DNA from: Acidobacteriota bacterium
GTDB lineage: Bacteria; Acidobacteriota; Terriglobia; Bryobacterales; Bryobacteraceae
Reading direction: 5' to 3'
Assembly (NCBI GenBank): GCA_025353165.1
Contig: JANXRE010000155.1
Span: 1 to 36,843 of the forward strand
DNA length: 36,843 nt
The position numbers and the translations under genes are program-made. This document shows positions 3,432 through 15,582 of this stretch, in pieces. Numbering within the stretch: the stretch's first letter is position 1; each line of letters begins with the position of its first letter. The notes under the pieces were generated by a model, which had not been told where the DNA came from, did no database searches, and saw nothing but the letters and a program-made list of their open reading frames with translations.

Positions 3432-4400
3432 TCATTTGGCACTGGAACCAACACCTTCCAGCAATTGCTTCCAGCTTTGAAGCTCGCGGCCGGGATCGAA
3501 GAGCGGTTGTAATTTCAAGCAGCGGTTCTTCAACTCGTCGTAAAACGAGCCATCTGTTTCCAGGCGGCTCATGAGACGGGCGAGAGACTGCGTGTCGCCG
3601 ACATCGAAAAGCCCCGGGTATTCCGGCCCCAGCAATCCCACCGAACCATCAATCCGCGAGGCGATTACGGGCACACCGTCTGCAATGGCCTCAGAGATGA
3701 CGTTGGCGCCGCCTTCCATCAGCGAGGTCACCGCGACCACTTTGCTCAATGCCGTAATGCGCCGCGAGTTCCGGCGTGACAGCTCACCCAGCCAGCGGTA
3801 GCGCGGGTTCCCGGCCTCCTCCTGCCGCGCCTGCATCTCGTAGTCGACAGTCAGCGCGCGGCCTATCTGGAGAATACGCACCCGGGACGAGGGCGGCAAG
3901 AGCCGAGCCGCGGCCGCCGCCCGCAGCGGATCCTTTACCTCCCGCAGGTGCCCCGGAACGGCGATGTCGAAACGATCGATGTCGAAAACAACGTCCGGCC
4001 GATTCGAGTCTCGCGTGGACTCCGCCGACTGATAGATCACGCGGGCCTTCGGGTGGTACTTCTGCGGCAGCGCTTGCAGCGCCAAGGGTTGCAGCACGAC
4101 GATCCGCCACGCAATGTCCAGCGCCGTTTGTGCCGCACCGCTGCCGGGCAGGTCGCGATACAGATCCGTGCCGGTCAGCGCGACCACAACTGGGCGCGCC
4201 GGACAGGTCTGGTAGGAGCGCGAGACCGAGGCAGCACTCTTATGGGCGTGCAATGCAATCAGCACATCGCACTGCTCGCCGCGGTACGCCCCGGCGATCC
4301 TAACCCGGTTCCCTAACGCCCGTAACCTGGCTGCCCAGCGCAATGCAGTGGTCCGGTTTCCCGCGCGGCTGCCCGGCGCCGCCGGACATAGAATGAGCAC
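3432..4400 (-). CDS. senB: Glycosyltransferase SenB-like (selenosugar synthase, TIGR04348 type)
   Basis: This 322-residue GT-B fold glycosyltransferase opens LILCPAAPGSRAGNRTTALR, the typical start of the TIGR04348 family. The C-terminal half has the nucleotide-sugar E-x7-E motif EGGANVISE (E229 and E237) followed by ADGVPVIASRIDGS. Members of this family next to EgtB-like enzymes were shown to be SenB, which joins a UDP-sugar with selenophosphate to give a selenosugar, the selenium donor for selenoneine. The neighbour 24 bp away on the other strand is the matching SenA-like enzyme, which strongly supports the call. The start is GTG at 4398-4400, with a GGGGGAT ribosome binding site about 7 bp upstream. 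In the described clusters sen genes are usually codirectional; here they diverge. A role with sulfur rather than selenium cannot be excluded from sequence. Confidence 0.85.
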   Translation of the reverse strand: MLILCPAAPGSRAGNRTTALRWAARLRALGNRVRIAGAYRGEQCDVLIALHAHKSAASVSRSYQTCPARPVVVALTGTDLYRDLPGSGAAQTALDIAWRIVVLQPLALQALPQKYHPKARVIYQSAESTRDSNRPDVVFDIDRFDIAVPGHLREVKDPLRAAAAARLLPPSSRVRILQIGRALTVDYEMQARQEEAGNPRYRWLGELSRRNSRRITALSKVVAVTSLMEGGANVISEAIADGVPVIASRIDGSVGLLGPEYPGLFDVGDTQSLARLMSRLETDGSFYDELKNRCLKLQPLFDPGRELQSWKQLLEGVGSSAK

Positions 4401-4424
4401 TCACATATCCCCCATAATGGCTCC
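4401..4424. promoter_or_regulatory. 24-bp divergent spacer between senB and senA
   Basis: Only 24 bp separate the GTG of senB from the ATG of senA. A full promoter for either gene cannot fit, so the core promoters must lie inside the opposite coding sequences, or senA must be translated from a very short or absent leader. No Shine-Dalgarno sequence precedes the senA ATG, whereas senB has one. This arrangement predicts coordinated or mutually interfering transcription. Confidence 0.5.
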
Positions 4425-5717
4425 ATGGACCGTCCGTGGCAAACCGCCCGTTATCTGACGTCGGCGCTGAAGGACTCCCGCAAGCGTACGCTGGAACTGG
4501 TGAGCGACCTGAGCGACGAGCAACTCCGCGTGCCGTTGCTGCCCACCATCAACCCGGTTATCTGGGAGATGGGACATGTTGGCTGGTTCCAAGAGAGATG
4601 GGTCCTGCGCCACTCACGAAAACAGGCTCCGCTGCTGGAACACGCGGATGTGCTTTGGGACTCGGCGGCGGTGCCGCACGATACGCGCTGGGAGTTGCCG
4701 CTGCCTGCGCGCTCCGAAACGCTGGACTTTCTCACGCGCGTTCTGGATCGTGTCCTGGATGGGCTTGAATCGCGATTCGACGAAGAAGATCGATATTTCT
4801 GCTGGCTGGCGGTTATGCATGAAGACATGCATGGCGAGGCTCTGACGTATACCCGCCAGACACTCGGTTTCCCTCCGCCGGTGGGAAGCAAACGCGCCGC
4901 CGTTAATGGGCCTCCACCCAAGGGCGATGCGGAGTTTTTAGGAGGCCCGTTCCCGCTCGGAGCAAGGCGGGGTGAGAGCCTCGTTTTCGACAACGAGAAA
5001 TGGGAACATGCCCGCGAGATACAACCTTTTTCGATGTCGAAGTCCGCGGTCACGCAGGGCCAGTTCGCCGAATTCGTGGACGATGGGGGCTATACCAGGC
5101 CGGAGTTCTGGACCGGTGAAGGCTGGCAATGGCGCACTCTTGTGGACGCCGTTCACCCCGTGTACTGGATCCGGGATGGGCAACGGTGGCTGACGCGGTG
5201 GTTTGACGAGACGGTGGCGCTCGCTCCCGACGCGACCTTGATTCACGTGAACTGGTTTGAGGCTGACGCATATTGCCAATGGGCGCGGCGCAGGCTGCCG
5301 GCCGAAGCGGAGTGGGAATTCGCGGCTGCCGGACCCGGAAAGCGAGCGTACCCGTGGGGTGACGACGCTCCCGCGGAGGACGTTCTTTCGGCGAGTTCTC
5401 GAGCGAATCTGGATTTCTCCGTGGCGGGTTGCGCGCCGGCGGGCGCCTTCGCCGGGGGCGATACCCCGGAGGGCGTCCGGCAAATGATCGGCAACGCCTG
5501 GGAGTGGACGTCCGACGACTTCGGCCCTTACCCCGGCTACGTGCGCGACCCCTACAAGGAATACTCCGAGCCGTGGTTCGGGCCGCCGCATAAGGTCCTG
5601 CGCGGGGGCTGTTGGGCCACTCGCTCGCGACTGATTCGGAATAGCTGGCGTAATTTTTATCCCAAGCACCGGCGCGACGTTTTCGGAGGGTTTCGCACCT
5701 GCGGCCGGATCAGCTGA
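4425..5717 (+). CDS. senA: Selenoneine synthase SenA-like (EgtB-type nonheme iron enzyme)
   Basis: The 430-residue protein has an N-terminal DinB-like helical domain (about 1-160) and a C-terminal FGE-sulfatase/SUMF1 domain (about 170-428), the EgtB architecture. The three iron ligands are visible: H51 in WEMGHVGWF, and H132 and H136 in MHEDMHGE, matching H51/H134/H138 of EgtB. The C-terminal domain shows VNWFEADAYCQWA, RLPAEAEWEFAAAG, GNAWEWTSDDF, VLRGGCWAT and a final FGGFRTC. EgtB forms the C-S bond on hercynine; the SenA branch forms the C-Se bond using a selenosugar. Divergent pairing with a SenB-type glycosyltransferase is the main reason for choosing SenA over EgtB. No hercynine-forming EgtD and no SelD/SenC selenophosphate synthetase is in the window, so those steps must be encoded elsewhere. 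Start ATG at 4425 has no clear ribosome binding site. Confidence 0.87.
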   Translation: MDRPWQTARYLTSALKDSRKRTLELVSDLSDEQLRVPLLPTINPVIWEMGHVGWFQERWVLRHSRKQAPLLEHADVLWDSAAVPHDTRWELPLPARSETLDFLTRVLDRVLDGLESRFDEEDRYFCWLAVMHEDMHGEALTYTRQTLGFPPPVGSKRAAVNGPPPKGDAEFLGGPFPLGARRGESLVFDNEKWEHAREIQPFSMSKSAVTQGQFAEFVDDGGYTRPEFWTGEGWQWRTLVDAVHPVYWIRDGQRWLTRWFDETVALAPDATLIHVNWFEADAYCQWARRRLPAEAEWEFAAAGPGKRAYPWGDDAPAEDVLSASSRANLDFSVAGCAPAGAFAGGDTPEGVRQMIGNAWEWTSDDFGPYPGYVRDPYKEYSEPWFGPPHKVLRGGCWATRSRLIRNSWRNFYPKHRRDVFGGFRTCGRIS

Positions 5718-5750
5718 CGCTTTTCAGCTTCCGCATCTTCGCAGGGAAGA

Positions 5751-5800
5751 CAGGCGTCGCCAGGAGTGGCGACGCGGCACGCACGAGTGCGTGCGCCACG
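5751..5800 (+). repeat. REP-like double palindrome, family A, copy 1
   Basis: There are two adjacent hairpins. The first has arms GCGTCGCCA and TGGCGACGC around loop GGAG (5754-5775). The second has a 7-bp core GCACGCA/TGCGTGC around loop CGAG. It lies between senA and the prolyl oligopeptidase gene. Three more copies in the same orientation sit at 11064, 13194 and 15517. Confidence 0.85.
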
Positions 5801-5914
5801 TCGGACTGAGAGTGTCAACGCCAAGGCTGTAATGCTTTCCCTCCGCGTCCATTGTGTAGAAAGTCGGACTGAAAGTTGCGGGACGCGGATGCCCGTGGTA
5901 GCATCAACCGCATC

Positions 5915-11038: not shown

Positions 11039-11063
11039 CAGGGGCTCTCCACGCCACGGAAGA

Positions 11064-11113
11064 CAGGCGTCGCCAGGAGTGGCGACGCGGCACGCAGGAG
11101 TGCGTGCGCCACG
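11064..11113 (+). repeat. REP-like double palindrome, family A, copy 2
   Basis: It has the same two hairpins as the copy at 5751. Hairpin one is identical (GCGTCGCCA GGAG TGGCGACGC). In hairpin two the loop is GGAG instead of CGAG. It lies in the 98 bp between the Gfo/Idh stop and the MFS start within a minus-strand operon, so it would be transcribed. Confidence 0.85.
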
Positions 11114-11136
11114 TTGGTTTGTATATCGACTGGCAC

Positions 11137-13178: not shown

Positions 13179-13193
13179 ATGATGTGAAAATAA

Positions 13194-13243
13194 CAGGCGT
13201 CGCCAAGAGTGGCGACGCGGCACGCACGAGTGCGTGCGCCACG
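13194..13243 (+). repeat. REP-like double palindrome, family A, copy 3
   Basis: It has the same two hairpins; hairpin one has loop AAGAG in place of AGGAG at its tip, with the stem intact. It sits in the 87 bp between the upstream Gfo/Idh stop (13266) and the NagB-like start (13178), inside the minus-strand block. Confidence 0.85.
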
Positions 13244-13265
13244 ACGGACGTGTGATTTTTAGACA

Positions 13266-14568: not shown

Positions 14569-15582
14569 TCACTTTCCCGCCGCGTACTGCCGATACAATT
14601 CTTCCAGCCGCGCGGGCGTCATCTCGCCATCATAGATCAGCACGCGGTAGCGGAACGCGAGGGATTCTCCTTGCAGTATGGTCCAGCTTCCATCTTTACT
14701 CTTGTCGCTGTTGAATTCGCGCCATCCGAATGGGTTCGCGGCGAACAGTCCATAGGCGCGGGCATGCCACGTCGTGGGGTGGCGGAAACTGGAGGGCGAA
14801 TCAAAAACGGCGATGCCCACGGGTTTGCCCCCGACCGTGCCCGAGTAATTGACCCAATCGGCCGGCTTGCCCCAGATCGCGGCCTCGCCTCGCGCGCCGA
14901 GCGAGTTCAGCATGTGGTCGTGCGGCGCGCTCAGTTCGGCGTTCAGCCGGATTCCGAACGTGCCCTCTTTCGTATCGCCCATGACCACCGGACCGGCTGT
15001 CGCGCGGATGATGAACTCGCAGTCGATGGTTCTCGTATTGTCATCGCCGCGGAAGGTAAACGATTGGGTTTCTTCGCCGACCAGGCGTTGATTCGGGTCT
15101 AGTAGACTGTACTGTGCACGGACTGTCGAACGATCGCTCTCCACGCCCTTTAGCGCGGCGTGGCCGAAAGCCTGATGCCCGTGATCGTCGTAGTAACGAT
15201 TGAACGCGGCCTCGCCCCAGAAGTCCAGGCCGTCGATGTTCCCGTGCCCGAAGTAGAGAGGCCGTTGGTGCGGCTCGAAGGAAGAGTTTTTTGGATTCGC
15301 GCCCTTGATATCGTCGCCCACCGGAAACGGCCTGGTGATGACCACTCCGGCGGGCGTGCTCAGAGGCATCAGGTAGGGCTTGGCGGCGCCGGAAAAGAAA
15401 TATGTCGTGAAGGGTTTGCCCGCGACGATCACGTCGATGCGGTCCGGCCGGCGTTTTAGCTCGACGGAAGCGGAGGCACATCCGGCGAGCAGGAGCGCCG
15501 CGGCGCACGCAGAAGACAAGCGTCGGCATGAGTGCCGACGCGGCACGCACGAGTGCGTGCGCCACGTTGCAATCTGTTTCAT
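14569..15582 (-). CDS. DUF6807 (PmoA-like) lipoprotein
   Basis: The 337-residue protein starts ATG 15580-15582. It has a lipoprotein signal with lipobox LLLAGC (cysteine about residue 34), so it is probably anchored to a membrane. The mature part matches the PmoA/DUF6807 family: GKPFTTYFFSGAAKPYLMPL, ITRPFPVGDD, HQRPLYFGHGNIDGLDFW and PTTWHARAYGLFAANPFG. The Pfam name 'methane oxygenase PmoA' is historical and does not imply methane oxidation. These proteins recur in sugar-processing clusters next to Gfo/Idh genes, but the activity is not established to my knowledge. A REP element is translated in frame inside the signal region (residues about 6-22), giving a very basic, cysteine-containing n-region. 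It lies 8 bp after the receptor stop and 4 bp before the next gene. Confidence 0.82.
   Translation of the reverse strand: MKQIATWRTHSCVPRRHSCRRLSSACAAALLLAGCASASVELKRRPDRIDVIVAGKPFTTYFFSGAAKPYLMPLSTPAGVVITRPFPVGDDIKGANPKNSSFEPHQRPLYFGHGNIDGLDFWGEAAFNRYYDDHGHQAFGHAALKGVESDRSTVRAQYSLLDPNQRLVGEETQSFTFRGDDNTRTIDCEFIIRATAGPVVMGDTKEGTFGIRLNAELSAPHDHMLNSLGARGEAAIWGKPADWVNYSGTVGGKPVGIAVFDSPSSFRHPTTWHARAYGLFAANPFGWREFNSDKSKDGSWTILQGESLAFRYRVLIYDGEMTPARLEELYRQYAAGK
15517..15566 (+). repeat. REP-like double palindrome, family A, copy 4 (inside a coding region)
   Basis: The first hairpin reads GCGTCGGCA TGAG TGCCGACGC. Relative to the other copies one C-G pair is swapped to G-C in both arms, keeping the stem perfect. 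The second hairpin equals copy 1. The copy lies within the first 25 codons of the DUF6807 lipoprotein gene and is translated. Confidence 0.85.

What the first reader, a model, noticed from the sequence alone, without database searches (positions are those of the whole stretch)
3432..5717. Divergent senB/senA pair: selenoneine biosynthesis in a probable acidobacterium
A TIGR04348 glycosyltransferase and an EgtB-like enzyme with an intact iron triad (H51, H132, H136) sit head to head with 24 bp between starts. This pair is the hallmark of the selenoneine route. The usual third gene (SenC/SelD) and hercynine-forming EgtD are missing here, and the divergent layout differs from the codirectional operons described. 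It may be a rearranged or regulated variant, or one using a different chalcogen donor.
Basis: partly seen in the sequence, partly recalled or inferred. Interest (0 to 1): 0.8.

Follow-up and report, generated by a model that had tools for sequence, protein, structure and literature searches.

The report
Ordinary selenoneine gene pair, head-to-head
An acidobacterium carries two neighbouring genes that very probably make the selenium antioxidant selenoneine; the genes that seemed to be missing lie elsewhere in its genome and the head-to-head layout recurs in other bacteria, so this is a sound but ordinary example of a known pathway.

Summary
A SenB gene (3432-4400, minus) and a SenA gene (4425-5717, plus) start 24 bp apart, and SenA keeps H51/H132/H136. 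SenB passes NCBIfam TIGR04348 (357 bits, cut-off 300); SenA passes NF041186 (480, cut-off 420) and fails EgtB (315, cut-off 360). NF041186 cannot separate SenA from the histidine-using OvsA (wild type 424), so I tested residues. The three positions that turn OvsA into a hercynine-binding variant (PDB 8ux5 title) read Y380, N410, F411 here, the SenA state. The 'missing' genes are in the genome: one SelD with an in-frame TGA, EgtD beside another EgtB-like gene, and tRNA-Sec. The layout is not unusual: 15 of 60 sampled SenB loci with SenA are head to head, and neither SelD nor EgtD lies nearby in 32 of those 60; RefSeq annotates the same layout on a Methylorubrum plasmid. No other chalcogen donor is needed. 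Verdict: an ordinary selenoneine module with dispersed partner genes. More curious leads lie outside the window: SenB in genomes without detectable SenA, and a SenA paralogue with a remodelled pocket.

The parts
3432..4400 (-). senB, selenosugar synthase (Se-glycosyltransferase), 322 aa, GTG start
   Evidence: TIGR04348 357.4 bits, cut-off 300; 184 bits to V. paradoxus SenB 8fbx/8jjn; residues equivalent to N20, T23, H58, T83, T85, R155, K158, E231 kept, R61 is K
4401..4424 (.). 24-bp gap between the two start codons; promoters for the two genes must overlap the opposite gene (inference)
   Evidence: one promoter-like match on the minus strand 4442-4414 inside the first senA codons, CATAAT 7 nt before the senA ATG (by eye); leads only
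4425..5717 (+). senA, selenoneine synthase, 430 aa, DinB-like + FGE-like domains
   Evidence: NF041186 480.3 bits, cut-off 420; PF12867 and PF03781; iron histidines 51/132/136; hercynine-type residues Y380/N410/F411

Best explanation
The pair is the committed module of the selenoneine pathway. SelD, encoded on another contig and read as a selenocysteine protein, makes selenophosphate; SenB couples selenophosphate to a UDP-sugar to give a 1-selenosugar; EgtD, encoded beside an EgtB-like gene on a third contig, trimethylates histidine to hercynine; SenA, an iron and O2 enzyme, joins selenosugar selenium to hercynine, and the selenoxide breaks down to selenoneine. The two genes are probably read from overlapping divergent promoters. 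Shown here: gene identity, residues, presence of these genes in one genome. Inferred: the chemistry (from the V. paradoxus enzymes), the Sec reading of SelD, and the regulation.
For: Scores over cut-off for SenB, SenA, EgtD (323.4 bits, cut-off 290.9) and SelD (361.6, cut-off 125). SelD reads ...KAAG-TGA-ASKLSPKVL..., TGA at the Sec/Cys position (position recalled), and tRNA-Sec scores 74.7 bits, gathering 47. SenA triad Y380/N410/F411 equals the state of SenA and of the hercynine-binding OvsA variant, while wild-type OvsA is M/Q/A. EgtB R87 and D416 equivalents are H85 and Y412. 12 of 12 further columns that separate SenA (at least 90% of 52 other rows, and V. paradoxus) from OvsA are SenA-type. 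SenA over cut-off occurs only with SenB in the order sample (4 of 4).
Against: No expression data, no metabolite. Whole-protein comparisons do not favour SenA over OvsA: identity 40.7% to V. paradoxus SenA and 39.3% to OvsA, 53 against 51 shared residues at 227 differing columns, and the predicted structure ranks OvsA (Z 37.2) above SenA (Z 31.1) (mean pLDDT 77.9, residues 362-383 under 50). SenA as a clade without OvsA has only 30 of 100 bootstraps, with one OvsA in the tree. EgtD is not significantly enriched in SenA genomes (3 of 4 over cut-off against 55 of 146; P = 0.30). The genome has an EgtB-like gene beside egtD, so hercynine may serve another product too. No SECIS-like fold stood out after the selD TGA (z -0.56 and -0.81).
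Confidence: 0.87

Rival explanations
1. The SenA-like enzyme is an OvsA: it puts selenosugar selenium on histidine and the product is ovoselenol or a relative.
For: OvsA is the best hit by sequence (variant 8ux5 273 bits, wild type 8u41 263 bits) and by structure (Z 37.2); wild-type OvsA also passes NF041186 (423.9 against 420).
Against: Y380/N410/F411 instead of M/Q/A; TIGR04373 signature 80 bits against a cut-off of 71, wild-type OvsA 44.7; EgtD is in the genome; 12 of 12 diagnostic columns SenA-type.
Confidence: 0.04
2. It is a sulfur enzyme: an EgtB for ergothioneine, with the glycosyltransferase making a thiosugar or serving another purpose.
For: The fold is shared; the genome encodes EgtD; EgtB score is 315 bits.
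Against: Below the EgtB cut-off; positions of EgtB R87 and D416 changed (their role in binding gamma-glutamylcysteine is recalled); grouping with SenA+OvsA in 95 of 100 bootstraps; another EgtB-like gene already sits beside egtD, though it is below every curated cut-off; PMC10702425 (part 1 of 3 read) reports 10-20-fold discrimination by SenB against thiophosphate.
Confidence: 0.05
3. The pair is acquired and silent or non-functional in this lineage.
For: Patchy: 7 of 150 (SenB) and 4 of 150 (SenA) genomes of the order are over cut-off; the one other genome of the genus in the sample (G038) has SenB under cut-off and no SenA match at E <= 1e-60.
Against: Both frames intact with active-site residues kept; GC3 of 0.75 and 0.72 lies within the range of the other called frames, 0.55-0.81; the pair occurs in two families of the order.
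Confidence: 0.04

Closest known systems
sen cluster of Variovorax paradoxus (SenA, SenB, SenC)
   Same: SenB and SenA families, residues and predicted chemistry; PMC9814287 and PMC10702425 describe SenC (selenophosphate), SenB (selenosugar), SenA (hercynine to selenoneine) in a three-gene cluster
   Different: No SelD/SenC next door; the one SelD over cut-off lies on another contig and has an in-frame TGA. The gene orientation in V. paradoxus was not seen in any call
senA/senB of Methylorubrum populi plasmid pMPOP01 (NC_010727.1)
   Same: Head-to-head, 27 bp between starts, no SelD or EgtD annotated in the 11.5 kb shown; named senA and senB in RefSeq
   Different: Alphaproteobacterial plasmid; SenB 42.7% identical over 97%
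senA/senB of acidobacteria gp3 AA111, gp3 AA109 and NC_groundwater_990 (L068, L079, L091)
   Same: Head-to-head; SenA 57-59% identical; in one clade with the window and L172 in 74 of 100 bootstraps
   Different: Separate records; no SelD or EgtD found in the flanks held
OvsA of Halomonas utahensis (8u41, 8u42, 8ux5)
   Same: Fold, iron histidines, selenium branch of the family
   Different: Histidine substrate (PDB titles); M/Q/A where the window has Y/N/F

Membership tests
SenB (selenosugar synthase, TIGR04348) | Equivalog score over curated cut-off | tested here: met
   357.4 against 300
SenB (selenosugar synthase, TIGR04348) | Residues tested by mutation in PMC10891094 (N20, T23, H58, R61, T83, T85, R155, K158, E231) | tested here: met
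   8 of 9 identical, R61 is K; K there in 5 of 60 SenA-linked SenB
SenB (selenosugar synthase, TIGR04348) | Makes selenosugar from selenophosphate and UDP-sugar | not testable with these tools
   needs enzyme assay
SenA (selenoneine synthase, NF041186) | Equivalog score over cut-off | tested here: met
   480.3 against 420; not specific, since wild-type OvsA also passes (423.9)
SenA (selenoneine synthase, NF041186) | Three-histidine iron site | tested here: met
   H51, H132, H136
SenA (selenoneine synthase, NF041186) | Hercynine-type residues (Y, N, F at OvsA 401/430/431) | tested here: met
   Y380, N410, F411; YNF in 52 and YNY in 5 of 58 SenA-clade rows, CCL in 1
SenA (selenoneine synthase, NF041186) | Phylogenetic placement with SenA and apart from EgtB | tested here: met
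   SenA+OvsA against EgtB 95 of 100 bootstraps
SenA (selenoneine synthase, NF041186) | Phylogenetic placement with SenA and apart from OvsA | tested here: inconclusive
   30 of 100 bootstraps, one OvsA only
Selenoneine pathway | Selenophosphate synthetase in the genome | tested here: met
   C12:96638-97546, 361.6 bits, cut-off 125
Selenoneine pathway | Hercynine supply (EgtD) | tested here: met
   C82:21915-22823, 325 bits PF10017; TIGR03438 323.4 against 290.9
Three-gene sen cluster (A, B, C together) | senC/selD next to senA/senB | tested here: not met
   none of the four SelD-model matches of the genome lies on this contig
EgtB (TIGR03440) | Equivalog score over cut-off | tested here: not met
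   315 against 360
OvsA | Histidine-type residues M/Q/A | tested here: not met
   Y/N/F

The most novel reading that the evidence does not exclude
A dispersed selenoneine pathway wired into selenocysteine translation: the selenosugar module is driven from one overlapping bidirectional promoter, its selenium comes from the only SelD of the cell, itself a selenoprotein, and its hercynine is borrowed from an ergothioneine-type egtB-egtD pair, so that selenium status sets the split between the sulfur and the selenium betaine.
Probability: 0.3. Interest if true: 0.4.

Novelty: new member of a known kind. Interest (0 to 1): 0.2.

Why it matters
It adds an acidobacterium to the likely selenoneine makers and shows that absence of SelD or EgtD beside senA/senB says little about the pathway, since in 32 of 60 sampled loci neither partner was found nearby. 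It also shows that NF041186 does not separate SenA from OvsA while three residues do. I judge that nothing in the window itself would surprise a specialist.

Tried and rejected
Rejected: a different chalcogen donor (SelD present); loss of hercynine supply (EgtD present); a layout unique to this genome; a known RNA element in the window (no Rfam match at gathering score). Folding of 57 and 81 nt after the selD TGA gave nothing better than shuffles (z -0.56 and -0.81), so the Sec reading rests on TGA position, its recurrence (about two thirds of the 130 SelD matches listed carry one TGA, counted by eye) and tRNA-Sec. A viral-contig scan with SenB confirmed no relative among 6 candidates. SelA, SelB and SelU were not searched. 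An IQ-TREE run failed on threads and a second timed out; FastTree with bootstraps replaced it (60 replicates, SenA without OvsA 22, SenA+OvsA 55; 100 replicates). The OvsA row was the triple variant 8ux5, which I noticed only from its title; repeat the score and the tree with the wild-type letters of 8u41; the count was not repeated (the three changed columns are not among its 12). Eight short rows and three duplicate contigs were dropped before the tree. An attempt to sample more OvsA failed; a plasmid search with OvsA gave 9 hits at 27-39% identity, not examined further, so OvsA stands on one sequence. Start-to-start distances of the divergent pairs were estimated by script for 11 of 15, some negative; they are not used. 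A -10-like CATAAT/GATAAT 7-8 nt before the senA ATG was seen by eye in the window, L048 and L049 but not L079; not tested statistically.

Full report
Observation. The window is one whole contig (C71, 36,843 bp) of a 5.77-Mb genome in 200 contigs, 98.4% complete. The SenB frame begins with GTG directly after an in-frame TGA, so its start is fixed.

Identity of the genes. SenB reaches 357.4 bits on TIGR04348 (cut-off 300) and SenA 480.3 on NF041186 (cut-off 420), with EgtB TIGR03440 below its cut-off (315 of 360). Pfam gives glycosyltransferase group 1 domains for the first and DinB_2 plus FGE-sulfatase for the second. Residues that PMC10891094 (outline and the sections on SeP binding and on mining SenB-like enzymes read) tested by mutation are kept in 8 of 9 cases, with Lys for Arg61.

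Selenium or sulfur. In an alignment of 82 rows the positions of EgtB Arg87 and Asp416 (numbers and role recalled) hold His85 and Tyr412 in the window; His is found at the first in 56 of 58 SenA-clade rows. SenA plus OvsA separate from EgtB in 95 of 100 bootstraps.

Hercynine or histidine. OvsA is the closest solved protein by sequence and by structure (Z 37.2 against 31.1 for SenA), and wild-type OvsA itself passes the SenA model (423.9 against 420). Overall identity does not decide (40.7% SenA, 39.3% OvsA). The PDB title of 8ux5 calls M401Y/Q430N/A431F a hercynine-binding OvsA variant with selenoneine-biosynthetic activity. The aligned window residues are Tyr380, Asn410 and Phe411; of 58 SenA-clade rows 52 have YNF, 5 YNY and 1 CCL, and the 21 EgtB rows have YNW (14) or YNF (7). 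The window therefore carries the hercynine set. In addition, 12 of 12 columns that are at least 90% conserved in 52 other SenA rows, shared by V. paradoxus and different in OvsA, are SenA-type. The tree does not settle SenA against OvsA (30 of 100).

The missing genes. SelD is on C12 (361.6 bits), with TGA where SelD has its Sec or Cys (position recalled), and is the only match over cut-off. tRNA-Sec is on C156 (74.7 bits, gathering 47). EgtD is on C82 (TIGR03438 323.4 bits), just downstream of a 372-aa EgtB-like protein that is below every NCBIfam cut-off and closest among solved structures to EgtB-IV and OvoA. In 150 genomes of the order SelD is over cut-off in 129 and EgtD in 58. Of the four genomes with SenA over cut-off, three have EgtD over cut-off and the fourth, 81% complete, has fragments; this enrichment is not significant (P = 0.30).

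The layout. In the same order, SenA and SenB are head to head in G149 and G001 as well as here, and codirectional with EgtD in G135. Of the 80, 60 have SenA of at least 200 bits near SenB: 45 codirectional and 15 head to head; 20 have none. Among the 15, L122 has about 750 bp between the genes and the SenA frame of L131 is interrupted. SelD lies within the flank in 11 of 60, EgtD in 18 of 60, neither in 32 of 60; some flanks are cut by contig ends. RefSeq annotates senA and senB head to head, 27 bp apart, on plasmid pMPOP01. The acidobacterial head-to-head members form a clade with a G135 paralogue (74 of 100), so the layout there is most simply inherited and not a fresh rearrangement.

Regulation. 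With 24 bp between starts, promoters should overlap the opposite gene. One promoter-like match lies on the minus strand at 4442-4414, inside the first senA codons (1 found, 0.1 expected). A CATAAT/GATAAT 7-8 nt before the senA ATG in three of four acidobacterial pairs examined by eye would fit a leaderless senA transcript. Both are leads.

How it probably works. SelD makes selenophosphate, SenB a selenosugar, EgtD hercynine, and SenA joins them; selenoxide elimination gives selenoneine (pathway from PMC9814287, whole text; PMC10702425, part 1 of 3; PMC10903977, passages). Gene presence and residues are shown here; the reactions are inferred from the V. paradoxus enzymes. The original papers (Kayrouz 2022 and 2024) are not held.

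Novelty. New member of a known kind. One search for papers with at least three of 'selenoneine', 'gene cluster', 'divergent' and 'Acidobacteria' found 262 papers and listed 15; among those 15 only PMC10702425 and PMC9103826 hold 'selenoneine', and neither holds 'Acidobacteria' (listing only). I make no claim beyond that.

Side leads. Of 23 genomes with SenB but no SenA beside it, 18 have no SenA match at E <= 1e-40 genome-wide, while the two positive controls rang; completeness is unknown for 15 of the 18. Those 15 (13 Planctomycetota by title, 2 Rubrobacter) keep the pocket residues, with Lys for Arg61 in 12, and 14 of 15 have SelD over cut-off. Caveats: L145 is cut just before SenB, and L146 has a 40-bit SenA-like scrap beside SenB, so the Rubrobacter cases may be broken loci. 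Of the three from the window's order, L051 has His for Arg155, L052 has lost N20, H58, T83 and T85, and L053 is cut by the contig end. The planctomycete cases may use selenosugars for something other than selenoneine. G135 has a second SenA-like gene (402 bits, below cut-off) with the iron histidines but Ala, Met, Cys, Cys, Leu, Ala at positions 85, 377, 380, 410, 411, 412, which suggests another substrate or lost activity.

Noticed in passing
L071, L090, L098, L100, L105, L108, L110, L112, L126, L133, L135, L137, L138, L145, L146; G056, G053, G116: SenB in genomes without a SenA match (18 of 23 tested), 13 of the 15 loci from Planctomycetota by title; the 15 keep the selenosugar pocket and 14 of 15 genomes have SelD. 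Possibly an unknown selenosugar product. Among 22 SenA-lacking loci compared, the only clear shared neighbour was SelD, in three.
   Followed up: partly
L172 1492-2748 minus; L178 7016-8605 minus (G135 C79): Second SenA-like gene in a genome that also has senA-senB-egtD; iron triad kept, substrate residues replaced (A85, M377, C380, C410, L411, A412), no SenB among the frames called around it.
   Followed up: partly
window 5742-5804, 11055-11117, 13185-13247, 15508-15570: 63-nt repeat with inner palindromes (by eye), four copies at 86-100% identity, the first just downstream of senA.
   Followed up: no
L014 8789-9907 and 9904-10833 plus (G000 C82): Short EgtB-like protein closest to EgtB-IV/OvoA structures followed by egtD; a similar pair in G149 (L179 8800-6584). 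May mean an ergothioneine-type product in the same cell.
   Followed up: partly
L189 4738-6849 (NZ_CP044550.1, Hydrogenophaga plasmid): senB head to head with an EgtB/SUMF1-family gene amid arsenic, chromate and heavy-metal genes.
   Followed up: no
order sample of 150 genomes: About two thirds of 130 SelD matches carry one in-frame TGA (counted by eye); at least 11 genomes of genus g2 have no SelD match at E <= 1e-30 although other g2 genomes do.
   Followed up: no
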